Positions 49,976-64,000 of a DNA stretch of 64,000 bases are shown one piece after another; the first letter of the stretch is position 1, and each line of letters starts with the position of its first letter. Both the position numbers and the translations under genes were made by a program. Below the pieces are notes generated by a model. That model saw nothing but the letters and a program-made list of their open reading frames with translations. It made no database searches and was not told where the DNA came from. This DNA is from Lutibaculum baratangense AMV1 (lineage in GTDB: Bacteria; Pseudomonadota; Alphaproteobacteria; Rhizobiales; Tepidamorphaceae), in NCBI RefSeq assembly GCF_000496075.1, contig NZ_AWXZ01000016.1, forward strand, positions 90,326-154,325. Direction: 5' to 3'.

Positions 49976-50130
49976 CATGCAGGGCTATAGACCCCAACAA
50001 GCGCCAATGCCGAACAGTCGCATTTACAGGGATTTAGGGCCAGTCGTCTGTTGAAAATCGTTGGCGAATGGGGCATGTTGATGGGAGCAAGTGTCCCCAA
50101 TTTGTCCCCGCGCGTCCCCGAGGCCCCGCC

Positions 50131-51333
50131 ATGCCCACCATCGAAAAGCGTGTCCGCAGCGACAACGGCGATACCTACTATCGCGTCCGCGTGCGGGTGC
50201 GCGGGCTGCCCGAGAAGCAGAAGACCTTCAAGCGCCTGACGGATGCGAAGCTGTGGGCGCAACAGACGGAAGCGGCCATCCGGCGCGGCGAAGTCCAGAA
50301 CGTCGTTCCGGCCGCGAAGGGCAAGACGCTCGCCGACGTGATCGAGCGCTACAAGAAGCGCGTGCTGCCGCACCGGGCGGAAAGCACCCAGCGGGCGGCG
50401 GTGACCTATCTCGCCCATTGGGAGAAGGTGCTCGGTGCCTATGGGCTGACCTACATCACGGCCGATCTGATTGAAGCGGAGCTGGAGAAGCTGGCCGCCG
50501 CCGGAGACACACGGCGCAAGAGTGAGGAAGGCGAACCGGCTGGCAAGCCGAAGAGTCGCAAGACGATCAAGCATTACCGGGACACGTTGGCGCTGCTGAT
50601 GAAGCACGCCAAAGCGTGGGGCTGGGCGACCCAGAACCCCATGGAGGGGGTGACGCCCATCACCAACATTCGGGATGAGCGCACGCGGTTCCTGAGTGAT
50701 GCGGAACGCGCCGTCCTGCTCGACGCCTGCAAGGCGAGCGACAACGATCAGCTGTTCAACATCGTGGTGTTCGCGCTTTCGACCGGCGCGCGGAAGAGCG
50801 AAATCCTCGGCCTGACGCTGGCCGACGTGGACCTCCAGCGCGGCTCGGCGATCTTTCGGGACACGAAAAACGGCGACACGCGGGCCGCGCCCCTCGCCCG
50901 CCATCTGCGGGAGCTGCTGACGGGACAGGTGGCGAAGGCGGAAGCCCTGTATGCCGCGCTGTCCCATGCGCCAAAGACGCGCTGGCTGTTTCCGCGCGCA
51001 GATGGGGTGCTGCCCATCGATATTCGCACCGCGTGGGAAAACGCCCGCGACAAGGCGGGACTGGTGGACTTCCGCTTCCATGACCTGCGGCACTCGACGG
51101 CCAGCTACCTCGCCATGAAGGGCGCGAGCCTGGTGGAGATTGCGGAGGTGCTTGGTCACCGCACGCTTCAGATGGTGCGCCGCTACGCGCACCTGTCCGA
51201 AAGCCACGTCAAGGGGCTGGTGGAAAGCCTGGGCGAGGACATCTTCGAGGGCGCGGCGGACGGCGCGCGACCTGCGAAGGAATTGAACAGGGCCGGAAGT
51301 TCGGTCATAAGGAAAGTCCCTGCTCCTTTATAG
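50131..51333 (+). CDS. Tyrosine recombinase (island integrase)
   Basis: A 400-residue phage-type integrase that probably inserted this island at tRNA-Met. The catalytic set is R221 in STGARKSEILG, H317 and R320 in HDLRHSTASYL, H343 in EVLGHRTLQMV and Y352 in RRYAHLS. An N-terminal arm-binding/SAM-like part (residues 1-170) begins MPTIEKRVRSDNGDTYYRVR. The ATG at 50131 was selected for this start; an ATG 21 codons upstream adds unrelated sequence. It begins about 155 nt inside the tRNA remnant and points into the island. Confidence 0.95.
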   Translation: MPTIEKRVRSDNGDTYYRVRVRVRGLPEKQKTFKRLTDAKLWAQQTEAAIRRGEVQNVVPAAKGKTLADVIERYKKRVLPHRAESTQRAAVTYLAHWEKVLGAYGLTYITADLIEAELEKLAAAGDTRRKSEEGEPAGKPKSRKTIKHYRDTLALLMKHAKAWGWATQNPMEGVTPITNIRDERTRFLSDAERAVLLDACKASDNDQLFNIVVFALSTGARKSEILGLTLADVDLQRGSAIFRDTKNGDTRAAPLARHLRELLTGQVAKAEALYAALSHAPKTRWLFPRADGVLPIDIRTAWENARDKAGLVDFRFHDLRHSTASYLAMKGASLVEIAEVLGHRTLQMVRRYAHLSESHVKGLVESLGEDIFEGAADGARPAKELNRAGSSVIRKVPAPL

Positions 51334-51642: not shown

Positions 51643-51671
51643 TTGCATAAAGTCCATATATGTACCATACT
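51643..51671 (+). promoter_or_regulatory. Promoter of the Xre/RES toxin-antitoxin pair
   Basis: TTGCAT at 51643-51648, a 17-nt spacer and CATACT at 51666-51671. The region is AT-rich compared with its surroundings, with overlapping ATAT/GTAC and CATGTA short repeats that could serve as the autoregulatory site of the antitoxin. It is 31 nt before the antitoxin start. Confidence 0.6.
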
Positions 51672-51701
51672 AAGCATGTAACCCACTATTGGAGGCCAGC
51701 C

Positions 51702-52106
51702 ATGGCTGCGCACGGACAACCAGCACCTGCGATTGATCGCAAAGGCCTTTCTGGCCCGGCGCTGCGGACGTTCTTTCGCATTGCCGAGCTATGGGACCTG
51801 TCGGTCGACGAGCAAATGACGCTTCTCGGCGTGACCGCGCGCTCGACCTTCTTCAAGTGGAAGAAGGACCCGAATACGGCGCTGCCGAAGGACACGCTGG
51901 AGCGCATCTCGTACATCCTCGGGGTCTACAAGGCTCTTCAGATCCTGCTTCCCGACGAGACGGCAGCAGACGCTTGGGTCAAGCGGCCGAACCAAGCCCC
52001 TCTCTTCGCCGGGAAGTCGGCGCTCGATCGGATGCTGTCCGGTCAGGTAGCCGACCTGTTCGTCGTCCGCCAATACCTCGACGCCCAGCGCGGCGGTTGG
52101 GCATGA
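51702..52106 (+). CDS. Xre/MbcA/ParS-type antitoxin
   Basis: A 134-residue protein of the MbcA/ParS/Xre (DUF2384) antitoxin family. The N-terminal Xre-like helical domain has LRTFFRIAELWDLSVDEQMTLLGVTARSTFFKW. The C-terminal toxin-binding part includes LERISYILGVYKALQILL and ends with LSGQVADLFVVRQYLDAQRGG. An ideal GGAGG lies upstream. Its stop overlaps the toxin start (ATGA). Such antitoxins neutralise RES-domain toxins and repress the operon. Confidence 0.9.
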   Translation: MAAHGQPAPAIDRKGLSGPALRTFFRIAELWDLSVDEQMTLLGVTARSTFFKWKKDPNTALPKDTLERISYILGVYKALQILLPDETAADAWVKRPNQAPLFAGKSALDRMLSGQVADLFVVRQYLDAQRGGWA

Positions 52107-52792
52107 CGTTGCCGGTCGCCCACATCGACTGGAAGCCGTGCTGGCGGATCATCCCCAGCCGGTTTCCTCCGATTCAGCTGTTCGAGCGGGTGACCGAGCC
52201 GGACGACCTCGAAGCCATTTTCGAGCTAGAGTCGCTCACCAACCCTCGTCTGCGCGATGAAGTGGGCGAAATCAGCCTCGTGCCGCCGGAGGACCGGATA
52301 AGCGGCCCCGGCACCAGCATCATCATGGCGGCTTTCACGCACCTCAATCCCGATGGGAGCCGCTTCACTGACGGGACTTTCGGCGTGTTCTACGCCGCCA
52401 ATGACCTGGAGACGGCCATTGCCGAGACGAGGTACCACCGTGAGCGCTTCATGCTGGCCACCGCGCAGGCGCAAATGGAACTCGACATGCGGGTCTATGT
52501 CATCGACCTCGCGGGCGATCTCCACGACCTGAGGGGACAGAAAGCCGCCTATCCGCTCGTCTATCACAACGACAACTACGCTGCGGCCCAGCACCTGGCC
52601 AAGTCGCTGCGCAAGGACGGCTCGAACGGCGTTGCCTACGAAAGTGTGCGGCGTGACGGCGGGGAGTGCGTGGCCGTGTTTCGCCCGCCCCTGCTCTCCA
52701 ACGCACGGCAAGAGCGGCACCTTTGTTACGTCTGGGACGGCGCGCGGATAACGACAGTCTACGAGAAGCGCGAGCTCGGTAACGGGCGATAA
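52103..52792 (+). CDS. RES-domain toxin
   Basis: A 229-residue RES-family toxin. The family degrades NAD+ and stops growth unless bound by an Xre antitoxin. The hallmark residues lie in CWRIIPSRFPP (Arg), FGVFYAANDLETAIAETRYHRERF (Tyr and Glu) and, later, SNGVAYESVRRDGGECVAVF (Ser). The gene is translationally coupled to the antitoxin (ATGA overlap). It may stabilise the island or act as an abortive-infection partner for the restriction operon that starts 24 nt further. Confidence 0.92.
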   Translation: MTLPVAHIDWKPCWRIIPSRFPPIQLFERVTEPDDLEAIFELESLTNPRLRDEVGEISLVPPEDRISGPGTSIIMAAFTHLNPDGSRFTDGTFGVFYAANDLETAIAETRYHRERFMLATAQAQMELDMRVYVIDLAGDLHDLRGQKAAYPLVYHNDNYAAAQHLAKSLRKDGSNGVAYESVRRDGGECVAVFRPPLLSNARQERHLCYVWDGARITTVYEKRELGNGR

Positions 52793-52816: not shown

Positions 52817-54949
52817 GTGAGCAATCTCAACATCAGCAATTTCATTTGGAACATTGCCGACGATGTTCTTCGGGATGTCTACGTGCGGGGGAAATACCGC
52901 GACGTCATCCTGCCGATGACGGTGATCCGGCGTTTGGACGCGGTGCTTGAGCCGACGAAGGACGCAGTGCTGTCAATGAAGGCCCGGCTCGACAAAGCGG
53001 GCGTGGCGAACCAGCACGCAGCGCTTTGCCAGGCTTCCGGCGAGGCGTTCTACAACACCTCGCAATTCAGGCTGAGAGACCTCGCGGCGCGCGCTCGCCG
53101 TCAGCAGCTCAAGGCCGACTTCGAGGCATATCTCGATGGGTTCTCGCCCAACGTCCAAGAGGTGTTGGATAAGTTCAAATTCCGCAATCAAATCCCGACT
53201 CTGATCGAAGCGGACGTGCTTGGCTTCTTGATCGAGAAGTTCCTCGATCCCTCGGTCAATCTCAGTCCGAAACCGGTGTTGCACACGGATGGCACCGTTC
53301 GATTGCCGGGCCTCGACAACCATTCGATGGGAACGATCTTCGAGGAGCTGATCCGTCGGTTCAACGAAGAAAACAATGAGGAGGCTGGCGAACACTTCAC
53401 CCCGCGCGACGTGGTGGAGCTGATGGCCTATCTCATTTTCATGCCGATCGCCGACGACATCCAGTCCGGCACTTACCTCGTCTATGACGGCGCCTGCGGC
53501 ACGGGGGGCATGCTGACGGTGGCCGAAGAGACGCTCGTGAAGTTGGCCACCGATCACGGGAAGGAGGTGTCGGTCCACCTCTACGGACAGGAATCGCAGC
53601 CCGAAACCTTCGCCATCAGCAAGGCCGACCTGATCTTGAAGGGCGAAGGCGTCGAAGCCGAGAACATGAGGTTCGGCTCGACGCTGTCATCGGATGCTTT
53701 CCCGTCGCGTGAATTCGATTTCATGCTCTCCAACCCGCCCTACGGAAAGTCTTGGAAGACCGACCTGGAGCGGATGGGGGGAAAGAAGGACCTTCGGGAC
53801 CCCCGTTTCGTCATCGAGCATGGTGGCGATCCCGAGTACAGCCTGATCACGCGCTCCAGCGACGGCCAGATGGTTTTCTTGGCCAACCTGCTGAGCAAGA
53901 TGAAGTCGGCGTCACCGCTCGGAAGCCGAATTGCCGAAGTCCACAACGGCTCCTCGCTCTTCACCGGGGATGCGGGCTCGGGCGAAAGCAACGTCCGCCG
54001 CTGGGTCATCGAGAACGATTGGCTGGAAGCCATCATCGCCCTGCCGCTGAACATCTTCTACAACACCGGTATCGCCACCTACATCTGGGTCCTGAGCAAT
54101 CGCAAGTCGGAGAGCCGCAGGGGCAAGGTACAGCTCATCGACGCCACGTCCTGGTTCAAGCCCCTCCGAAAGAACCTCGGGAAGAAGAACTGCGAACTCG
54201 CGCCTGACGACATCATCCGTATCTGTGAGGCGTTCCTCCAGTCGAAGGAGGACGAGACATCGAAGATTTTCCCGAACGAAGCGTTCGGCTACTGGAAAGT
54301 AACGGTCGAGCGCCCGTTGCGCCTGAAAGTCGAGCTGACGGATGCCCGCTTGCGGGCCTTCCGCAAGGCTTGCGCTGAGGCGGGAGAACAAGACGTGGTG
54401 CGCGCCGTCGAGTCCATGGCCGAGGTCAGTGGCCCCGGCCCGCACATGGATTTCAACGCCTTTATGGCTGAGGTTGAGGACGCAGCCAGCGACCTGGGCG
54501 TTCGCATGACGGCGAAGCGCCAAAAGCTACTTATGTCGGCGCTCGGACAGAAGGATGCCTCAGCTGAACCGGTCATCCGCAAGGCGTCGAAGCCAAAGGC
54601 CGGAGCGGATGCGGGGCACGGCGCACTGTACGGCAGCTACCACATGACCGTCGGCGGCAAAGCCGCTGTTGTCGAATATGAGCCCGACACTGAGCTGAGA
54701 GATACCGAACAGGTACCGTTCCTCGAAGACGGCGGCATTGAAGCGTTTTTCCGGCGCGAAGTGCTGCCGCACGCCTCCGATGCCTGGATCGATGAATCGA
54801 AGACGGTGATCGGATACGAAATTTCGTTCACGCGGCATTTCTACAAGCCGCAGCCCTTGCGCACGCTCGATGAGATCGAAGCGGACATCCGAGCGCTGGA
54901 GAAAGAGACGGAGGGCCTGCTCGAAGACGTCCTCGTGGGAGGGCACTGA
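52817..54949 (+). CDS. hsdM: Type I restriction-modification methyltransferase subunit
   Basis: The modification subunit, 710 residues, starting at GTG ([19 protein letters not shown]). It is a gamma-class N6-adenine methyltransferase. SAM motif I is [11 protein letters not shown] (from residue 223) and the catalytic NPPY is at 306-309 in [10 protein letters not shown]. The N-terminal HsdM_N domain is clear. The last 200 residues go beyond the usual length of about 500-520 and end in a helix ([19 protein letters not shown]); comparable long forms exist in a subgroup of type I systems. It starts 24 nt after the RES toxin and begins the tight restriction operon. Confidence 0.95.
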
Positions 54950-54951
54950 GC

Positions 54952-56748
54952 ATGGCAACACAACGCTACTCGGTCACGCCGCACCCCATCGAGACGCTCC
55001 TGACCTGGGTGAAGTCCGGCGAAATCGCGATCCCCGAAATCCAGCGCCCCTTCGTTTGGGACGCGACGAAGGTCCGCAACCTTCTCGACTCCCTCTATCA
55101 AGGCTATCCGGTCGGCTATCTCATCGCCTGGCGCAATCCCTCGGTGCGACTGAAGGATGGCACGACGTCGTCGGGCAAGCGCATCCTCATTGACGGGCAA
55201 CAGCGGGTCACGGCGCTCATGGCGGCCCTTCTGGGGCAAGAGGTGCTGACGAAGGACTACGAGACCGTCCGGATCAGGATCGCCTTCCATCCCGTCGAGG
55301 AGCGGTTCGAAGTGTCGAACCCGGCCATCCGAAAGGATGCCGCCTGGATTCCCGATCTTGCTGCCGTCTTCTCGCCGGACGCCAGCCTCACCGAGCTGAC
55401 CGACGACTACTCCGAGCGCAACCCCAGTGCCGACCGGAAGCAGGTCTCGCGCATCCTCGAACGGGTCCGCAAAGTCATCAACAACCACGTCGGCATCATC
55501 GAGCTGGCTGAAGACCTCGACATCGAAACGGTGACGGAGATTTTCATCCGCGTGAACTCCGCGGGTGCGTCGCTCAGCCAAGCCGATTTCGCCATGTCGA
55601 AGATCGCGGCGAATGACACCTATGGCGGCAACATGCTGCGCAAGGCCATCGACTATTTCTGCCATCTGGCCGTCGCGCCCGAGTTTCTCTCGCGAATCGA
55701 GAAGGGCGACAAGGCGTTCGCCGCTTCAGAGTTTCTGCCGAAGATGCGGTGGCTGAAAGACGTCAACGACGACCTCTACGATCCCTCCTACACCGACATG
55801 CTGCGCGTGGCGTTCACCTCCGAATTCCGGCGCGGAAAGCTTCAAGACCTGGTCGCCCTGCTGTCAGGGCGCAACTTCGAGACCAAGCAGTATGAGGAAG
55901 CCGTTGCCGAGGAAGCGTTCGCGCGACTTAAGACCGGCGTCCTCAATTTCATGAACAAGACCCATTTCGACCGCCTGACGATGATCCTGCGGTCGGCGGG
56001 CTTCATCACGTCCGGCCTGATCCGGAGCCAGAACGCGATCAACTTCGCCTACATCCTCTATCTGCGCGGTCGGGCCGAGGGCATGCCCGCTGCTGACATC
56101 GAGCGGCTGGTGCGGCGCTGGTATGTCATGTCGCTGCTTCGTGGCCGCTATTCGGGCAGCCCAGAGACCGCCTTCGACTTCGACATCCGCCAGATCGAGG
56201 CGCGTGGCCTGACGGCCTATTGCGAAGCGGTCATCGACGCCGAACTGCCTGACAGCTTCTGGAGCACCCTGTTGCCGCAGGAGATGGAAACCTCTTCAGC
56301 CTCCAGCCCCTATTTCCTTGTCTACCAGGCGGCGCAGGCGAAGCTCGGCGACCTCGGGTTCCTGTCGCGCGACATCACGGTCCGCGACCTGCTGCTGAAC
56401 CGCAGCGACGTTCACCACGTCTACCCGCGCAACCATCTGAAGAAGCAAGGTATGGCGCGGGGCCGGTACAACCAGATCGCCAACTTCGTGCTCGCCCAAA
56501 GCGAGATCAACATCGTCATCGGCGACAGGGCGCCCGAGGTCTACTTCGCCGAGCTGGCTGACCAGTGCAACGGCGGGATCAAGAAGTACGGCGGCATCAC
56601 CACCTTGGACGAATTGCGAGCCAACCTCTCGATGAGCTGCCTGCCCGAAACGATGCTCGACGGCGAAATCCCCGACTTCGGTGAATTCCTAGACATGCGC
56701 CGCCACCTGATGGCGACGAAGATCAAGACCTATTTCGAGGGGCTGTAG
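54952..56748 (+). CDS. DUF262 plus HNH protein (GmrSD-like), inside the R-M operon
   Basis: A 598-residue protein. The N-terminal DUF262 (ParB-like NTPase) domain shows [19 protein letters not shown] (from about residue 24) and the nucleotide-binding [11 protein letters not shown] at 80-90, with [16 protein letters not shown] later. The C-terminal part has [15 protein letters not shown] (from 486) and [17 protein letters not shown], an HNH/DUF1524-like nuclease motif. This is the domain pair of type IV GmrSD enzymes, which cut modified phage DNA. It lies 2 nt after hsdM and 1 nt before hsdS, so it is made with the type I system. Confidence 0.88.
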
Positions 56749-56749
56749 G

Positions 56750-58153
56750 ATGGACGCGTTGAAGAGCTATCCCGCCTATCGCGACAGTGGGCTGCCGTGG
56801 CTCGGCAAGGTCCCGGAACATTGGGATGTTCGCCGCAACGGACGCTTGTTCGCTGAACGCGTCGAGACCGGCTTCGAGGATCTACCGATCTTGGAGGTAT
56901 CGCTGCGGACCGGCGTTCGGGTGCGCGACATGGAGAATGGCGCCCGGAAGCAGCAGATGGCGGACCGCAGCAAGTACAAGCGGGCGGCCAAGGCCGACAT
57001 CGCGTACAACATGATGCGCATGTGGCAGGGCGCAGTGGGCGTCGCGCCAGTGGATGGCCTTATCAGCCCCGCCTACGTGGTCGCACGGCCCTTTCCCGAG
57101 GTCGATCCGCGCTACTACACCTATCTCTTCCGAACGTCCGCTTACATGCGCGAAGTGAACAAGTTCTCGCGCGGGATCGTCTCGGACCGCAACCGGCTCT
57201 ATTGGGACGAGTTCAAGCAGATGCCGTCGGCGTTTCCTCCAACGGAGGAGCAGACCCGCATCGCCGACTTCCTCGACGATCACGGCCGGCGGACAACTCG
57301 CCTGATCCGCAACAAGCGGCGGCTGATCGGGCTTTTGAACGAGCAGAAGCAGGCGATCATCAATCGGGCCGTCACGCGCGGCCTGAACCCCGACGCCCCG
57401 ATGAAATCTACCGGCATCGACTGGATGCCCGAGGTTCCGGCGCATTGGGACGTGAAACCGCTCAAACACTGGCTACGGGAACGCGCCAAGGCGCTCGGGG
57501 ACAAAACTCCGTCCGAGTACGAGTTCGATTATCTCGACATCAGCTGTGTTGGCACCGGCTTTCTGACGGCCCAGCCAGAACGTATGAAATTTGAGAATGC
57601 CCCGTCCCGCGCGCGGCAGATTGTTCAGAAGGGCGACACAATCCTTTCGACGGTCCGGACATACCTCAAAGCGGTCTATTTCATTGACGGCGACTGGCCG
57701 GACCTGATCGCTTCCACAGGCTTCGCTGTACTGCGCCCCGTCGAGCGGGTGGAGCCCCGATTGCTCGGCTATGTGCTACAGAGCAGCACCTTCATCGAAC
57801 GTGTCATCCGTGCGTCCATCGGAGTTGCCTATCCAGCGATTTCAGAGGGGCGTCTGGGCACGCTTCATGTCGCGTTTTCCCCTGATCTCGCCGAACAGAA
57901 AGCCATCCTCGATCATATCGCGGCTGAAACCGCCACCTTCGACAAGGCAATCGAGAAAGCTCAGAGCGAGATCACACTGATCCGTGAATACCGTGAGCGC
58001 CTGATTGCCGATGTCGTCACCGGCAAGCTCGACGTTCGCAATATCGAGATCGCTGCGCCCGTGGACGATCCAATCGCCAACGAGGACGACGCGCTGGAGG
58101 AATTTGACGGAGACGAAGCCGAAGTAATGGAGGGGGCGGATGCCGAAGAATAG
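56750..58153 (+). CDS. hsdS: Type I restriction specificity subunit
   Basis: Determines the DNA target of the restriction complex. The 467-residue protein has two target-recognition domains, each followed by a long conserved helix. The first begins SGLPWLGKVPEHWDVRRNG and the second SIDWMPEVPAHWDVKPLKHW-like GIDWMPEVPAHWDV; the two helices include PTEEQTRIADFLDD and LAEQKAILDHIAAETATFDKAI. This two-fold layout suggests a bipartite recognition sequence. The hsdR frame starts 14 nt before its stop codon. A target cannot be predicted by reading. Confidence 0.93.
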   Translation: MDALKSYPAYRDSGLPWLGKVPEHWDVRRNGRLFAERVETGFEDLPILEVSLRTGVRVRDMENGARKQQMADRSKYKRAAKADIAYNMMRMWQGAVGVAPVDGLISPAYVVARPFPEVDPRYYTYLFRTSAYMREVNKFSRGIVSDRNRLYWDEFKQMPSAFPPTEEQTRIADFLDDHGRRTTRLIRNKRRLIGLLNEQKQAIINRAVTRGLNPDAPMKSTGIDWMPEVPAHWDVKPLKHWLRERAKALGDKTPSEYEFDYLDISCVGTGFLTAQPERMKFENAPSRARQIVQKGDTILSTVRTYLKAVYFIDGDWPDLIASTGFAVLRPVERVEPRLLGYVLQSSTFIERVIRASIGVAYPAISEGRLGTLHVAFSPDLAEQKAILDHIAAETATFDKAIEKAQSEITLIREYRERLIADVVTGKLDVRNIEIAAPVDDPIANEDDALEEFDGDEAEVMEGADAEE

Positions 58154-61100
58154 GCCCGCCATTCCGGCCGAGACGAAGCGCGAGGTTCTTTTCGAGGCAC
58201 GGCACCATTGCGCCGTCTGCTGCGAGGGGCTTCCGCTGGAATACGCCCACATCATTCCGTGGCGCGACACGCAGGACCATTCGGCTGAAAATCTCATTGC
58301 CTTGTGCGCGAACTGCCACGAACGCGCGGACAAGGAAAACTGGGGCGCGCGATATCTCAAGAAATACAAGCAGGATCCCTGCATCCTGGCGCGCGGGGTT
58401 CCCCCGCCGATGACACCTGACCAGAAGGCGATGATCGATCTCATCGTCGCTCGCGACCCGGACTCGATGACCGAGCGCGAGAGGCTGCGGCTGGTCTCCA
58501 TGGTGGCAGCCTATGCCGGCGTCGCCGTATCGAACGTGTCCGTTGTCTCGGTGACTTCGGCAAACAGCTCACGGGTGCGGATAAGCCTGCCGCGCGAGGG
58601 CGCGGAGCGCTTGCTGCGGGGCTTCCGCGACGCTGATCCACGACTGCAAGCATTTCTAGGCGAGGCTGATTTGGTACGGGTGGAGCCTGGACCACAGGGC
58701 GAGGGAGGACCGCGCGTGACCAGACACACCGACACGAGTGAAAAGGGCCTCGAAACCCTGATCGTCCGCTCGCTGATCGACGAGGCCGGATATGTCGCCG
58801 GAGAGTCGAAGGACTTCGACAGGGACCACGCGGTCGATACCTCGAAGCTTTTTGTCTTCCTGAACGCCACGCAGCCGAAGGTATTGGAGGCACTCGGCAT
58901 CAGCGAGGACGGACCGAAGCGGCTACAATTCCTGCACCGGCTGCAAGGCGAGATCGCGAAGCGTGGCGTCATCGACGTGCTGCGCAACGGGGTGAAGCAT
59001 GGCCCAGGGTCCGTGGAGCTGTTCTATGGCACGCCGACGCCCGGCAACGCCAAGGCCGAGGCGCTGTTCGCCTCGAACGTCTTCAGCGTGACCCGCCAGC
59101 TGCACTACTCCAAGGATTCGACCAAGCTGTCGCTCGACGCGGCGTTGTTCATCAACGGCCTGCCGGTCGCGACCTTCGAGCTGAAGAACAGCCTGACCAA
59201 GCAGACGGTCGAGGACGCGATCGAGCAATACAAGCGGGATCGGGACCCCAAGGAGCTGTTGTTTCAGTTCGGCCGCTGCGTCGTCCACTTCGCCGTGGAC
59301 GACCACGAGGTGCGCATGTGCACGCACTTGAAGGGCAAGGCGTCGTGGTTCCTGCCGTTCAACAAGGGCTGGAACGACGGCGCGGGCAACCCGCCGAACC
59401 CGAACGGACTGAAGACGGACTACCTCTGGAAAGAGTACCTGACGAAGCGGAATCTCACCGACATTCTGGAAAACTACGCCCAGGTGGTCGAAGAGGTGGA
59501 CGAACGCGGAAAGAAGAAACCGCCAAAGCAGGTCTTCCCGCGTTTCCATCAGCTGGACGTGGTGCGGAAGCTGCTCGCCGATGCCAAAGCACAGGGCGCA
59601 GGCAAGCGCTACCTGATCCAGCACTCGGCGGGCTCAGGCAAGAGCAACTCGATTGCCTGGCTCGCCCATCAGCTGATCGGGCTGGAAACGGCGGGCAAGA
59701 CGACGTTTGACTCCGTCATCGTGGTCACCGACCGGCGCGTGCTGGACAAGCAAATCCGCGACACGATCAAGCAGTTCGCGCAGGTGTCGTCGGTCGTGGG
59801 CCACGCCGAGAAGTCGGGCGACCTGCGGGCATTCCTGACGGCGGGCAAGAAGATCATCATCACGACGGTGCAGAAGTTTCCCTTCATCCTCGATGAAATC
59901 GGCGACGAGCACCGCGGCCGGACCTTCGCCATCATCATCGACGAGGCTCACTCCAGCCAGGGTGGGCGCACGGCAGCAAAGATGAACATCGCGCTCGCAG
60001 CGAATGGCGCGGAGGAGGAAGAGGAGACGGTCGAGGACGCCATCAATCGTCTGATGGAAGCGCGGAAGGTCCTCCCAAACGCCAGCTATTTCGCATTCAC
60101 CGCCACGCCGAAGAACAAGACGCTGGAGGTGTTTGGCGCGCCCGCTCCGCAGGGGAACAAGGTCAAGCACGTGCCTTTCCACAGCTACACGATGAAGCAG
60201 GCTATCCAGGAGGGCTTCATCCTCGACGTGCTGAAGCACTACACGCCGGTCGACAGCTACTACCGCCTCATGAAGACAGTGGAGGACGATCCTCAGTTCG
60301 ATACGAAGCGAGCGCAGAAGAAGCTGCGAAAATATGTCGAGTCACACGACCATGCGATCCGGAAGAAAGCCGAGATCATGGTCGATCACTTCCACGACCA
60401 GGTGATGGCGCACCGGAAGATCGGCGGGGCGGCCCGCGCGATGGTCATCACCAACGGGATTCAGCGGGCCATTCAGTACTTTCACGCTTTTCAGGCTTAC
60501 CTGAAGGAGCGCAAGAGCCCGCACCAGCCCATCGTCGCTTTCTCGGGCGAGCATGAATACGGGGGCCAAAAGGTCACCGAAGCGACGCTGAACGGCTTCC
60601 CGAGCAGTCAGATTGAGGAGCTGATCCAGAAGGACCCGTACCGCTTCCTGATCGTCGCGGACAAGTTCCAGACAGGCTATGACGAGCCGCTGCTGCACAC
60701 GATGTATGTGGACAAGACACTGTCCGGCGTTAAAGCCGTGCAAACGTTGTCGCGCTTGAACCGGGCGCATCCGCAGAAACACGATACCTTTGTGCTCGAT
60801 TTCATGAACGACTTCGAGGCGATCAAGGCATCGTTCGAGCCGTACTATCGAACCACGATCCTCAGCGAGGAAACCGACCCCAACAAGCTGCACGATTTGA
60901 AGGCGGCTCTCGATGGTTATCAGGTTTATGCATGGGATCAGGTTGAGGACCTGGTGGCGCTTTACCTTGGAGGCGCGGACCGGGACAAGCTCGACCCGAT
61001 ACTCGACGCGTGTGTCGCTGCCTACAAGACCGACCTCGACGAGGATGGACAGGTCGATTTCAAGGGCAAAGCGAAAGCGTTCACGAGGACCTATGGGTTC

Positions 61101-61661
61101 CTGGCTGCGATCCTTCCCTACAGCAATGCAAGCTGGGAGAAGTTGTCCATCTTTCTCAATTTCCTGACGCCCAAGCTACCGGCCCCAGAAGAACAGGACC
61201 TCTCGAAAGGAATTCTCGAAGCGATCGATATGGACAGCTACCGCGTCGAGGCGCAGGCCGCGATGGCCATCGTGTTGCCCGACGCCGATGCGGAAATCGG
61301 CCCGGTGCCTGCCGTTGGCGGCGGCCGCAAACCCGAGCCCGAACTTGATCTGCTGAGTAACATCCTCAAGACCTTCAATGAGATGTTCGGGAACATCGAC
61401 TGGAAGGACCGGGACAAGATCGGGAAGGTGATCGCCGAGGAGCTTCCAGCCAAGGTATCATCCGACCGAGCGTACCAGAACGCCATGAAGAACTCAGACA
61501 AGCAGAACGCGCGGATCGAGCACGACAAGGCGCTTGAACGCGCCGTCATCGAGCTACTTTCCGACCATACGGAGCTCTTCAAGCAGTTCAGCGACAATCC
61601 ATCGTTCAGAAAATGGCTAGCGGAGACGATCTTTGCTGCCACCTATTCGGATGCATCTTGA
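58140..61661 (+). CDS. hsdR: Type I restriction endonuclease HsdR with N-terminal HNH-adaptor fusion
   Basis: A 1173-residue frame in two parts. Residues 1-75 are an HNH nuclease with zinc cysteines: CAVC (C24, C27), H37 in YAHIIPW, N51 in ENLIALC and CANCHERAD (C56, C59). Residues 85-190 are a small alpha-beta part with VSVVSVTSANSSRVRISLP and GAERLLRGF. From 193 the normal HsdR begins: PD-(D/E)xK as ATFELKN (E347, K349), Walker A GSGKSNS (about 498-504), DEAH at 601, RLNRAHPQK of motif VI. A GTG at 58716 with its own GGAGG could start a separate HsdR of 981 residues. The ATG at 58140 also has GGAGG upstream. Confidence 0.93.
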   Translation: MPKNRPAIPAETKREVLFEARHHCAVCCEGLPLEYAHIIPWRDTQDHSAENLIALCANCHERADKENWGARYLKKYKQDPCILARGVPPPMTPDQKAMIDLIVARDPDSMTERERLRLVSMVAAYAGVAVSNVSVVSVTSANSSRVRISLPREGAERLLRGFRDADPRLQAFLGEADLVRVEPGPQGEGGPRVTRHTDTSEKGLETLIVRSLIDEAGYVAGESKDFDRDHAVDTSKLFVFLNATQPKVLEALGISEDGPKRLQFLHRLQGEIAKRGVIDVLRNGVKHGPGSVELFYGTPTPGNAKAEALFASNVFSVTRQLHYSKDSTKLSLDAALFINGLPVATFELKNSLTKQTVEDAIEQYKRDRDPKELLFQFGRCVVHFAVDDHEVRMCTHLKGKASWFLPFNKGWNDGAGNPPNPNGLKTDYLWKEYLTKRNLTDILENYAQVVEEVDERGKKKPPKQVFPRFHQLDVVRKLLADAKAQGAGKRYLIQHSAGSGKSNSIAWLAHQLIGLETAGKTTFDSVIVVTDRRVLDKQIRDTIKQFAQVSSVVGHAEKSGDLRAFLTAGKKIIITTVQKFPFILDEIGDEHRGRTFAIIIDEAHSSQGGRTAAKMNIALAANGAEEEEETVEDAINRLMEARKVLPNASYFAFTATPKNKTLEVFGAPAPQGNKVKHVPFHSYTMKQAIQEGFILDVLKHYTPVDSYYRLMKTVEDDPQFDTKRAQKKLRKYVESHDHAIRKKAEIMVDHFHDQVMAHRKIGGAARAMVITNGIQRAIQYFHAFQAYLKERKSPHQPIVAFSGEHEYGGQKVTEATLNGFPSSQIEELIQKDPYRFLIVADKFQTGYDEPLLHTMYVDKTLSGVKAVQTLSRLNRAHPQKHDTFVLDFMNDFEAIKASFEPYYRTTILSEETDPNKLHDLKAALDGYQVYAWDQVEDLVALYLGGADRDKLDPILDACVAAYKTDLDEDGQVDFKGKAKAFTRTYGFLAAILPYSNASWEKLSIFLNFLTPKLPAPEEQDLSKGILEAIDMDSYRVEAQAAMAIVLPDADAEIGPVPAVGGGRKPEPELDLLSNILKTFNEMFGNIDWKDRDKIGKVIAEELPAKVSSDRAYQNAMKNSDKQNARIEHDKALERAVIELLSDHTELFKQFSDNPSFRKWLAETIFAATYSDAS
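58701..58718 (+). promoter_or_regulatory. Internal ribosome-binding site and GTG at the HNH/HsdR junction
   Basis: GAGGGAGG at 58701-58708, then 7 nt, then GTG at 58716-58718, in frame with the long reading frame. Translation from here gives MTRHTDTSEKGLETLIVRSL, the usual N terminus of HsdR. The spacing is optimal, so a short HsdR may be made next to the fused form. Confidence 0.65.
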
Positions 61662-61665
61662 AGGC

Positions 61666-62244
61666 TCACGCGACGCCATCGCGCACGGCGCCGCGTCCGC
61701 CAGGCAGGTGCCGATAAAGGGTAGCGACGGATACACCGAGCTCCCGCGATACGTCTTCCATGGTGATGGTGGGGTCGGAGAGCATACCTTTCGCCATTGC
61801 AATCTTTTTCGTCGTCATCTGCTTCGGCCTGCCGCCGCGACGCCCGCGAGCGCGCGAGGCCGCGAGACCTGCCATCGTCCGTTCCTTGATGATGCTGCGC
61901 TCAAACTCGGCCAGGGCGCCGAAGACGTGGAAGACGAAACGACCACCGGCGCCGCTGGTGTCGATTGCCTCGGTCAGGCTGCGAAATGCGATGCCGCGCG
62001 CCTGAAGGACCTCCACCGTCTCGATCAGCTGCTTCAGCGAGCGCGACAGACGGTCGAGCTTCCAGACCACCACCGTGTCGCCTTCGCGAGCGAACTCAAG
62101 CGCCGCCTTCAATTGGGGGCGCTCACGCTGCGCGCCGGAGGCCTGCTCGACGAACACCTTTTCGCACCCAGCCTGCGTCAGAGCGTCCAGCTGGAGCTCG
62201 GGCTTCTGGTCCAGTGTTGATGTGCGGGCGTAGCCGATGAGCAT
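61666..62244 (-). CDS. Serine recombinase (Tn3 resolvase / Pin invertase type)
   Basis: A 192-residue small serine recombinase. The N-terminal catalytic domain begins MLIGYARTSTLDQ, with the nucleophile Ser9, and continues through VVVWKLDRLSRSLKQL, GGRFVFHVFGALAEFERSI and KERTMAGLAASRARGRRGGR. The C-terminal HTH is MEDVSRELGVSVATLYRHL. Such enzymes resolve Tn3-type transposition cointegrates or invert DNA next to surface and tail genes. The start at 62244 gives the exact family N terminus. It is convergent with hsdR (4 nt apart) and lies downstream of the lectin-type gene on the same strand. Confidence 0.93.
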   Translation of the reverse strand: MLIGYARTSTLDQKPELQLDALTQAGCEKVFVEQASGAQRERPQLKAALEFAREGDTVVVWKLDRLSRSLKQLIETVEVLQARGIAFRSLTEAIDTSGAGGRFVFHVFGALAEFERSIIKERTMAGLAASRARGRRGGRPKQMTTKKIAMAKGMLSDPTITMEDVSRELGVSVATLYRHLPGGRGAVRDGVA

Positions 62245-62498
62245 GCATGTCCTCTCAAAACTCAACGTATATGGTACCAAATTGAGATGTTGGTTTCGAG
62301 AAGCTTTTTTGATAGCCTAAAGCAATGAGAGGTGCGCCGCCCGCCTCGGGCGGCGCCAGCCCTCTCAAAAACGGACGATTTTTCAATATTCCATATCGTA
62401 GTGACCTCTGTCAGAACATATACGCCGACGACATTCGCCGCGAATATTAGATTCGCTTCCGTTCTGAACCGATTTTTGCGAATTGTTTTAAATTTTAA
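62245..62498. other. AT-rich spacer with resolvase-side repeats
   Basis: About 254 nt between the recombinase and the surface-protein gene. CCTCTCAAAA occurs near 62250 and again at 62362-62371, and TGAGAGG is inverted at 62327. CTCAA...TTGAG (about 62259-62286) forms a further dyad close to the recombinase start, possibly its own operator or a res subsite. A plus-strand frame (62332-62583) through here is Pro/Arg-rich, then Phe/Asn-rich, with no domain, and is not accepted as a gene. Confidence 0.5.
62327..62368. repeat. 42-nt GC-rich palindrome in AT-rich surroundings
   Basis: TGAGAGG (62327-62333) and CCTCTCA (62362-62368) flank a perfect 10-bp stem, GCGCCGCCCG (62335-62344), loop CCT, CGGGCGGCGC (62348-62357). 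The GC-rich hairpin stands out sharply in an AT-rich region. The outer arm continues into TCTCAAAAACGG, which resembles part of Tn3/Tn21-type terminal repeats. It could be a recombinase site, an element end or a transcription stop. Confidence 0.6.
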
Positions 62499-64000
62499 TT
62501 ACGGAAACTTTCGGACACATCGAACGTTATATGATGCTACTTTTGCCCAGCCAGAGCTTCCGCCGCCTGGGAAACTTCTATAAAAACCCCACGCAGATCC
62601 ACTTGTCATGTTATCAGGGTCGTGGAAGTTTGTTTGCGTTGATGACCAATAAGTACCATCCGGGAAGCCACCTATTGCGGCACGGTTAGCGTACAATACC
62701 GCCAATTCATCTCTTGCCGGCAAATACCAAGCTGATCCAATTGAGCGACACAAGGCGGCAGCAGGATGGGCCGCGCTTGAATTAGCAATCATGGCATCCG
62801 TGTTGGCAGCTCCGTTAGTGAAACTACTCGTACCATTCGTGTGGGAGTTTGTCGTTTTATGAGATCTCGCACCCGAATTAGACGGCGTCGTGTAAAGGCC
62901 ACTTCCCGCATACACTGTACCATTTCCACAGTTTTGTCCAATAACGTTGCAAGTTCCAACTGAGCATGACTGATGCGCATACGATCCAGAAAGAGTTCCA
63001 GAATTACATTCGCGCTGTTGGCTACTGCAGGATCCGCCGAATGGCGCTGTTGCGGACTGGAATGCAGTTACAATTGCGCCGTGATTTACAGTACCGCCCC
63101 ATGGCAGCGCACATATACCTATCATTGTTGTAGCTGACCATGTCGTGCTGTAAGTGCCAAGCGTAACAGTGGCTGTGCTGGCAGTACCGTAACTGGAGGA
63201 GGTGGTTATACGCAGCCGCAGCGATTGCCCTGGATTGATCGGCGCAGACGTCACCCATGGGCCGCCTGCTACTTGTAATTGAGGACCTCCCGTTCCCGAG
63301 ACGGAGACAGTCAATGGGCCGTCGAACCCGGAGGTTGTTATTACCTCTGACTGAACCTGCGTGCCGACTGACTGATTGGCTAGGTTGGGAAAGCTGAAGC
63401 TATTTGGAGTAGTATCCTGTGAACGTGTTGTGATAGTCCAAGTCTGGTGGTAACTAGACAGACTGAGAGTAGTGCTGTTCTGGGTATTAAATGTTGATGC
63501 GGCTTGCATCCGGAGTGCCACGCTGTTCCCGGCCTCAACATTTGCTGAAGCGCCTTGCAAAGTGCCGTTTACAAGGATACTCGCTCCGTTTGACACTGTG
63601 GCTGTCCTAACACCAAAGACCCCCCCCAAAGTTATAGCATTTGATGTATAGATTTGCCCAGGCGTGGCATTGCTGACAGCGTTGAAAGCGCCTGTTGCGG
63701 TCGGTGCGGCACCCACTTCGACCCAAGATGTACCGGTACAGAGCAGAATAGCTTTTTGCGCTGAAAGATAGCGTAGAAGCCCTTCGTTGTTCGGATTGCA
63801 GGTTGGATTGTCTCCGAGCTGAAGCCCCTGCTGATGGCGGGTCGGCTGACTGAATACAGTTTCTCCGGTGGAGTCCACACGAGCACTCGGCAAGCAGCCT
63901 TGTAGGTTAGCAGAAGGGTGCTGGGGACCACCCAGCATGCCCTGATTACCGCAGGCGGAGACGGAAGTCAGCGATGCATCTACGGCTGATTGAAGCGATC
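62499..64000 (-). CDS. Surface or tail-type protein with repeats and a DUF1566 (lectin-like) end, 5' part outside window
   Basis: The frame stays open to the window edge (SLQSAVDASLTSVSACGNQG before an internal ATG at 63938), so at least 499 residues are here and the true start is beyond 64,000. Counted from that ATG: a segment NEGLLRYLSAQKAILLCTG at 51-69, two beta-rich repeats of about 88 residues (85-171 and 183-271) that both end in TW..TT, and a Cys-rich part (275-340) with CALPWGGTVNHGAIVTAF. The end (385-479) is DUF1566-like: WYLPARDELAVLY, YWSSTQ and VRCVRKFP. This is a C-type-lectin-like fold seen in adhesins and phage receptor-binding proteins. GC is far below the rest of the window. 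Confidence 0.75.
   Translation of the reverse strand, partial: SLQSAVDASLTSVSACGNQGMLGGPQHPSANLQGCLPSARVDSTGETVFSQPTRHQQGLQLGDNPTCNPNNEGLLRYLSAQKAILLCTGTSWVEVGAAPTATGAFNAVSNATPGQIYTSNAITLGGVFGVRTATVSNGASILVNGTLQGASANVEAGNSVALRMQAASTFNTQNSTTLSLSSYHQTWTITTRSQDTTPNSFSFPNLANQSVGTQVQSEVITTSGFDGPLTVSVSGTGGPQLQVAGGPWVTSAPINPGQSLRLRITTSSSYGTASTATVTLGTYSTTWSATTMIGICALPWGGTVNHGAIVTAFQSATAPFGGSCSSQQRECNSGTLSGSYAHQSCSVGTCNVIGQNCGNGTVYAGSGLYTTPSNSGARSHKTTNSHTNGTSSFTNGAANTDAMIANSSAAHPAAALCRSIGSAWYLPARDELAVLYANRAAIGGFPDGTYWSSTQTNFHDPDNMTSGSAWGFYRSFPGGGSSGWAKVASYNVRCVRKFP

What the first reader, a model, noticed from the sequence alone, without database searches (positions are those of the whole stretch)
58140..61661. 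HNH-adaptor module fused in frame to HsdR, with a second translation start at the junction
The first 192 residues of the hsdR frame look like a complete stand-alone protein: an HNH nuclease with four zinc cysteines, then a small alpha-beta part (VSVTSANSSRVRISLP...GAERLLRGF...) like those found behind HNH domains in free-standing proteins. The normal HsdR starts exactly after it. Both parts have their own Shine-Dalgarno: GGAGG before ATG 58140 and GAGGGAGG before GTG 58716. One gene could therefore give two proteins, a dual-nuclease HsdR and a normal HsdR. The dual-nuclease form would carry both HNH and PD-(D/E)xK sites in one translocating motor. I know of no described type I enzyme with this layout.
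Basis: partly seen in the sequence, partly recalled or inferred. Interest (0 to 1): 0.85.

Follow-up and report, generated by a model that had tools for sequence, protein, structure and literature searches.

The report
HNH–TRADD-N cap on restriction motor
A bacterial anti-phage gene joins an HNH DNA-cutting domain, and a bridge domain predicted to be related to the animal cell-death adaptor TRADD, to the front of a complete type I restriction motor, so that one enzyme likely carries two different DNA-cutting sites.

The parts
58129..58133 (+). Shine-Dalgarno (GGAGG) of the fused gene, inside the end of hsdS
   Evidence: sequence; anti-SD duplex energy -10.6
58140..58409 (+). HNH nuclease domain, residues 1-90; catalytic-type His37 at 58248-58250, zinc ligands C24, C27, C56, C59
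   Evidence: Pfam HNH/HNH_2 above cut-off; mean pLDDT 88-98 in its 10-residue blocks except the first (74); Foldseek and VIA match to the Cap5 HNH
58413..58697 (+). TRADD-N-like bridge domain, residues 92-186, beta-alpha-beta-beta-alpha-beta; conserved turn serine S143 at 58566-58568
   Evidence: AlphaFold; 1f3v_A in Foldseek and VIA; hhalign 98.9% to adaptors of relatives, several of which match PF20694; S143 105 of 105
58698..58739 (+). variable linker between the module and HsdR
   Evidence: mean column conservation 0.36 for residues 181-200, the lowest of the 20-residue blocks (others 0.48-0.95)
58701..58708 (+). internal Shine-Dalgarno (GAGGGAGG) before the junction start
   Evidence: sequence; duplex energy -11.4, stronger than at all 50 other internal ATG/GTG codons tested in the gene
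58716..61661 (+). HsdR moiety from the possible second start (GTG, codon 193) to the stop codon
   Evidence: HSDR_N, SWI2_SNF2, T1R_D3; native starts of the closest unfused relatives lie within two codons
59136..59186 (+). PD-(D/E)xK nuclease triad D333, E347, K349
   Evidence: 105 of 105 conserved; role of these residues from established knowledge of HsdR
59625..59648 (+). ATPase motif I (Walker A), residues 496-503
   Evidence: invariant in 105 except A497; 111 of 111 rows by motif
59940..59951 (+). ATPase motif II (DEAH), residues 601-604
   Evidence: 105 of 105, 111 of 111
52817..54949 (+). hsdM, methyltransferase subunit of the same operon
   Evidence: HsdM_N and N6_Mtase
54952..56748 (+). 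GmrSD_N (DUF262) gene inside the operon
   Evidence: Pfam GmrSD_N E 1.6e-29; PADLOC HEC-05 E 1.3e-31
56750..58153 (+). hsdS, specificity subunit; its stop overlaps the start of the fused gene
   Evidence: Methylase_S; PADLOC Specificity_I E 2.4e-111

Best explanation
The gene at 58140-61661 encodes in one frame an HNH nuclease domain, a domain predicted to have the TRADD-N adaptor fold, and a complete HsdR, and the HsdR motor likely serves as the invader sensor that switches on the HNH effector through the TRADD-N bridge. Shown by sequence and calls: the three parts, their intact motifs, their place in a type I operon (hsdM, DUF262 gene, hsdS, fused hsdR), the wide occurrence of the fusion, and the reuse of the same module on other defence proteins. 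Predicted: the TRADD-N fold and its kinship. Inferred: in the resting complex the bridge would hold the HNH domain inactive. When the enzyme finds unmodified sites, the motors translocate and then stall or collide. This would bring two or more HNH domains together, as tetramer formation does for the Cap5 HNH effector of CBASS, so that the HNH cuts in addition to the PD-(D/E)xK site. That second cut would either shred the invader more fully or damage the host when restriction is failing. In the window's clade the internal start would make a mixture of capped and uncapped HsdR, limiting how many HNH domains a complex carries; this step is untested.
Against: No experiment. The window's own sequence matches neither TRADD-N Pfam model. 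The residue before the turn serine is Asn in 92 of 105, not the tiny residue described for TRADD-N. RRM-like folds are common, and several unrelated chains score higher than 1f3v_A in VIA; no Foldseek E-value is below 0.001. By sequence the nearest solved HNH proteins are IscB and McrA, Cap5 only at E 0.74, and NCBIfam's IscB model hits the HNH part at 3.9e-8, far under its cut-off, so the Cap5 analogy rests mainly on fold. The full-length model is poor (pLDDT 64.7, pTM 0.37), so nothing is known about packing of the cap on HsdR. The variable linker could also mean no coupling at all. Gating and oligomer activation are analogies. The dS values are near saturation, and four of the printed values are undefined.
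Confidence: 0.55

Rival explanations
1. The HNH domain is simply an extra, ungated cutter carried by the motor. It nicks or cuts DNA wherever HsdR reels it past, and the small domain is only a spacer or DNA-holding part.
For: Both active sites intact; linker variable and probably flexible; several non-HsdR partners are also DNA motors.
Against: The same module precedes proteins that are not DNA motors (TIR, NACHT, GAF, STAS, sigma-54 activator). The bridge has its own invariant serine and a recognisable adaptor fold.
Confidence: 0.25
2. The module is a mobile or homing-type HNH passenger that inserts at the start of defence genes and does little for the host protein.
For: Repeated gain or loss on the HsdR tree; partner switching; a near relative without the module starts at the same ATG overlap with hsdS (L055).
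Against: In the fusions named here it is N-terminal, in frame, and with the TRADD-N domain in tow; HNH residues stay conserved across 105 fused proteins while residues around them change; the named partners are mostly defence or signalling proteins, though a transporter-like one (P0078) was also listed; dN/dS is well below 1 wherever dS is defined.
Confidence: 0.1
3. The module gives the type I enzyme a second trigger, for example sensing of phage anti-restriction proteins or modified DNA, and the HNH acts as a suicide effector when the PD-(D/E)xK arm is blocked.
For: TRADD-N is proposed to be a regulated protein-protein interface (PMC8195603); its sequence changes fastest, as expected of a part in an arms race; the Cap5 HNH is a killing effector (PMC12804361).
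Against: No partner protein or trigger was identified; no experiment.
Confidence: 0.2
4. Artefact: two genes joined by a sequencing or assembly error.
For: None found.
Against: Independent contigs with the same length of frame (P0002-P0005) and 111 of 120 listed hits fused; 13 fused loci among the 35 fetched from genome assemblies.
Confidence: 0.01

Closest known systems
Bacterial HNH-TRADD-N proteins (Kaur et al. 2021, PMC8195603)
   Same: HNH effector at the N-terminus, TRADD-N in the middle, a different C-terminal part; TRADD-N at the joint of constant and variable regions (sections 9 and 12 read).
   Different: The paper's main text has no mention of HsdR (0 hits); its listed C-terminal parts are repeats, STAND, caspase, PAS, GUN4, bDLD3 or HTH, not restriction motors. 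I did not see its source data.
Type I restriction subunit HsdR (for example EcoKI, EcoR124I; recalled)
   Same: PD-(D/E)xK nuclease, SF2 motor, hsdM and hsdS in the same operon.
   Different: An extra N-terminal HNH and bridge of about 190 residues; score under the NCBIfam hsdR cut-off (204.4 against 284.55 bits).
CBASS effector Cap5 (HNH-SAVED)
   Different: SAVED ligand domain replaced by TRADD-N plus HsdR; no cyclic-nucleotide part seen; by sequence only E 0.74.
Human TRADD N-terminal domain (PDB 1f3v)
   Same: RRM-like fold over residues 92-189 and a serine in the beta2-beta3 turn.
   Different: 18% identity; no death domain seen; Asn rather than a tiny residue before the serine.
[not shown]
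   Same: The same module at their N-termini (P0022, P0031, L019, P0263, P0285, P0288); 60-61% identical to the window's in P0022 and P0031.
   Different: Different motor or enzyme behind the cap. Names are best PADLOC models; system neighbours were not checked.

Membership tests
TRADD-N superfamily | RRM-like two-layer alpha+beta fold (beta-alpha-beta-beta-alpha-beta) | tested here: met
   AlphaFold elements E96-103 H112-126 E134-140 E144-151 H152-163 H167-176 E178-183; 1f3v_A matched
TRADD-N superfamily | conserved serine in the beta2-beta3 turn | tested here: met
   S143, 105 of 105 fused HsdR; nearly invariant (90% or more) in the 46 rows of A1
TRADD-N superfamily | tiny residue, usually Gly, before that serine | tested here: not met
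   Asn in 92 of 105; Gly in most of the more distant HNH relatives aligned. Described as 'usually' glycine, so not strictly required
TRADD-N superfamily | match to a TRADD-N profile | tested here: inconclusive
   window sequence no match; 13 and 9 of 46 rows match PF20694 and PF13820 at E<=1; hhalign 98.9% between the HsdR adaptors and those of the matching kind
TRADD-N superfamily | single copy between two globular domains | tested here: met
   between HNH and HsdR
Type I HsdR | HSDR_N nuclease, SWI2/SNF2 motor, helicase domain 3 | tested here: met
   PADLOC REase_I E 4.2e-43
Type I HsdR | NCBIfam TIGR00348 curated cut-off | tested here: not met
   204.4 against 284.55 bits; so called HsdR by domains and operon, not by this model
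Type I HsdR | hsdM and hsdS in the operon | tested here: met
Type I HsdR | ATP-driven translocation and cleavage | not testable with these tools
   needs biochemistry
Cap5-like HNH effector | HNH fold as in Cap5 | tested here: met
   (fold); by sequence only E 0.74
Cap5-like HNH effector | C-terminal SAVED domain | tested here: not met
   no SAVED in the Pfam result; so it works like Cap5 at most in its HNH part and is not a Cap5
Gene with internal start (two products) | conserved start codon with ribosome-binding site at the junction | tested here: inconclusive
   9 of 9 clade loci yes, 5 of 5 other fused loci no; synonymous-shuffle p 0.04-0.39
Gene with internal start (two products) | both proteins made in cells | not testable with these tools
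   needs ribosome profiling or proteomics

The most novel reading that the evidence does not exclude
Probability: 0.4. Interest if true: 0.87.

Novelty: new variant of a known kind. Interest (0 to 1): 0.72.

Why it matters
Bacterial TRADD-N proteins were predicted in 2020-2021 to be immune signalling bridges, but I know of no invader-sensing partner tested for them (recalled, not searched). Here the bridge is joined to HsdR, a machine whose trigger (unmodified DNA), motion and cleavage are well understood, so the TRADD-N switch idea becomes directly testable. It would also mean that some type I enzymes are not only DNA cutters but two-nuclease immune sensors. The same cap on unrelated defence proteins suggests a common plug-in effector across defence systems that are currently catalogued apart.

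Tried and rejected
Sequencing error or split gene: rejected. A general two-start mechanism: rejected beyond the window's clade. Full-length structure (40 sequences): confidence too low for domain packing; no fold search was run on it. PD-(D/E)xK by simple motif matched only 85 of 111 rows, and the motif for the turn serine 106 of 111; the alignment shows the triad and S143 in 105 of 105, so these motifs were too strict.

TRADD-like_N search in the genomes of five fetched loci: matches in 3 of 5 genomes, two of them at the loci already in hand (L097 is L023's DNA, L098 is L021's) and one at the start of a contig (L096); 0 of 14 control genomes. So no independent TRADD-N set without HNH was obtained, and the hhalign compares two parts of the same HNH family.

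Genome counts (own genome included): module in 1 of 8 family genomes and 4 of 398 phylum genomes at E<=1e-12, the three others matching only residues 4-77, 4-78 and 4-106, the HNH part or little more; 2 of 297 in the phylum of L009's genome, that genome included. HsdR without the module: 22 of 385 class genomes match at E<=1e-60 and 57 of 398 phylum genomes at E<=1e-100. I printed the frame before the match for all 25 other loci and for 15 new loci, L069-L083. No cap was seen, but L058 and L062 were printed from the middle of a broken gene, and L043 and L051 reach a contig end. The remaining rows were judged only by open-frame length and not read. The module is thus rare per genome. Plasmids: 1 of 72,556 records, residues 1-83 only. 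Viral contigs: 3 loci, one an HNH-TRADD-N-PLD-type protein (L064, by sequence likeness to L019); L063 gave no frame and was not followed.

L055 as an empty site: its start and its hsdS overlap are clear, but its hsdR frame ends after about 280 residues near a contig end and it fills 29% of tree columns; its place inside the fused clade rests on branches of 80-99%. 'Loss' is tentative.

Rows dropped: in the HsdR tree 5 of 26 chosen metagenomic rows lacked my junction motif and 8 far unfused loci were left out. In the module tree 3 near-copies were left out beforehand (P0002, P0003, P0005) and 3 of 166 rows fell out for coverage; some 'other' rows (such as P0148) may be cut-off HsdR fusions, so 14 changes is likely too high and only 5 are forced by well-supported branches. 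One search used 105 rows chosen by length out of the 111. One search counted Met/Val loosely (104 of 120 rows had the motif) and is used only for single rows. One search skipped 1 of 15 chosen rows. Both trees are quick trees without bootstrap.

Papers: PMC8195603 abstract, sections 8, 9, 12 and passages; PMC7159879, PMC12839542, PMC12707154, PMC8432527, PMC3874165 and PMC12804361 passages only (abstract passages among the last); all others search listings only, including six of the eight papers. Supplements were not available. Searches for this layout in print.

Full report
What is there. The frame 58140-61661 (+) is open for 1173 residues. Residues 24-67 match Pfam HNH and HNH_2 above cut-off; 200-400 match HSDR_N, 470-699 SWI2_SNF2 and 833-888 T1R_D3-like. 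The gene is last in an operon of hsdM, a GmrSD_N (DUF262) gene and hsdS, and its ATG overlaps the end of hsdS.

How common it is. A search with residues 1-200 gave 195 proteins; of the 120 listed, 111 (query included) carry HsdR behind the module and 9 do not (recounted). A scan of genome assemblies gave 35 loci with the module or its HNH part, of which 13 read as full HNH-HsdR fusions. They come from alphaproteobacteria, Rhodanobacter and a MAG called Deltaproteobacteria; the search in the phylum of L009 added one more (L100). Per genome it is rare: 1 of 8 in the family, the window's own.

Is it intact. In 105 aligned full-length fusions: H37 105, C56 105, C59 105, H60 105, C24 104, C27 94; D333, E347, K349 105 each; GSGKS and DEAH invariant; S143 105. 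Ten of 111 rows have the first zinc cysteines spaced CxxxC. So both nuclease sites are kept across the family.

What the HNH is nearest to. By fold it is nearest to Cap5 and by PADLOC models to endonuclease effectors and SAVED-HNH (7.6e-5 to 8e-4). By sequence against solved structures it is nearest to IscB and McrA, with Cap5 at E 0.74. So the Cap5 analogy is one of fold and arrangement.

History. On a tree of 56 HsdR cores (35 fused, 21 unfused), the fused state needs at least 6 changes, 5 forced by well-supported branches. On a module tree of 163 rows, HsdR against other partners needs at least 14 changes, 5 forced (some labels unsure). Unfused HsdR of 84-87% identity exist. In one of these, L055, the hsdR start overlaps hsdS exactly as the module's start does in the window, which suggests in-frame gain or loss right behind the start codon. 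Between the window and L005, dN is 0.36 in TRADD-N, 0.16 in HNH and 0.06 in HsdR; dS is high, from 0.62 to 2.28 over the parts of that pair. The bridge changes fastest while staying under purifying selection.

The second start. In 9 of 9 clade sequences codon 193 is ATG or GTG and the anti-SD energy is -8.3 to -11.4; at most 2% of the 42-52 other internal ATG/GTG codons per gene are as strong. The linker residues differ between members (EGGPRV, VEGVRRM, VQGGREM, VQGGSRM) while the site is kept. But the linker's own residues explain part of it (p 0.04-0.39), the nine are related, and two protein-only clade members lack Met or Val there (P0011, P0017). The five fused loci outside the clade have nothing comparable. 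Native starts of the closest unfused relatives lie within two codons of codon 193, so the site may be a kept original hsdR start. I rate two products in this clade at about 50%.

Mechanism. Shown: the parts and their conservation. From papers: HsdR cuts when translocation is blocked, for example by collision (PMC3874165), and Cap5 needs tetramer formation to place HNH domains side by side (PMC12804361). Inferred: the collision or stall of capped motors brings HNH domains together and releases the TRADD-N hold, adding a second nuclease. The full-length model is too poor to support or refute packing.

Novelty. Text searches for TRADD-N with HNH, HsdR with HNH and fusion, TRADD-N with restriction-modification, Druantia with TRADD, and DISARM/DrmD with HNH gave no description of this layout in what I saw (passages of seven papers; six of the eight papers were not opened). 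HNH-TRADD-N itself is known. I file the finding as a new variant of a known kind.

Noticed in passing
window 54952-56748 (+): A GmrSD_N (DUF262) gene with a C-terminal HxxH-like stretch (by eye) sits between hsdM and hsdS; it is kept at 89-91% identity in five of the eight other clade loci (L002, L003, L004, L006, L007), only its start matches in L008, L005 has no match, and L012's contig ends upstream of hsdS.
   Followed up: partly
window 51660-52792 (+): Xre-type antitoxin and RES-domain toxin genes directly upstream of hsdM.
   Followed up: no
window 50068-51333 (+) and 61666-62280 (-): An integrase-like gene (by sequence only, not scanned) and a serine resolvase flank the operon; the module is absent from the seven other family genomes searched: probably a mobile island.
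   Followed up: partly
P0208 and P0211: The same HNH is followed by EAD11 instead of TRADD-N (for P0208; P0211 by its Pfam column), so the HNH also swaps adaptors.
   Followed up: partly
P0026: HNH-TRADD-N, TIR, PTS-HPr and EIIA-like parts in one 788 aa protein.
   Followed up: no
L064: An HNH-TRADD-N protein like the PLD-helicase fusion L019 lies on a contig of the viral collection.
   Followed up: no
L009 (Acidobacteriota MAG): HNH-TRADD-N fused to a sigma-54 activator with a Fis-type HTH, which points to a transcriptional response.
   Followed up: no
window 62499-63998 (-): A long open frame rich in Thr, Ser and Asn runs off the window end; not scanned, not identified.
   Followed up: no
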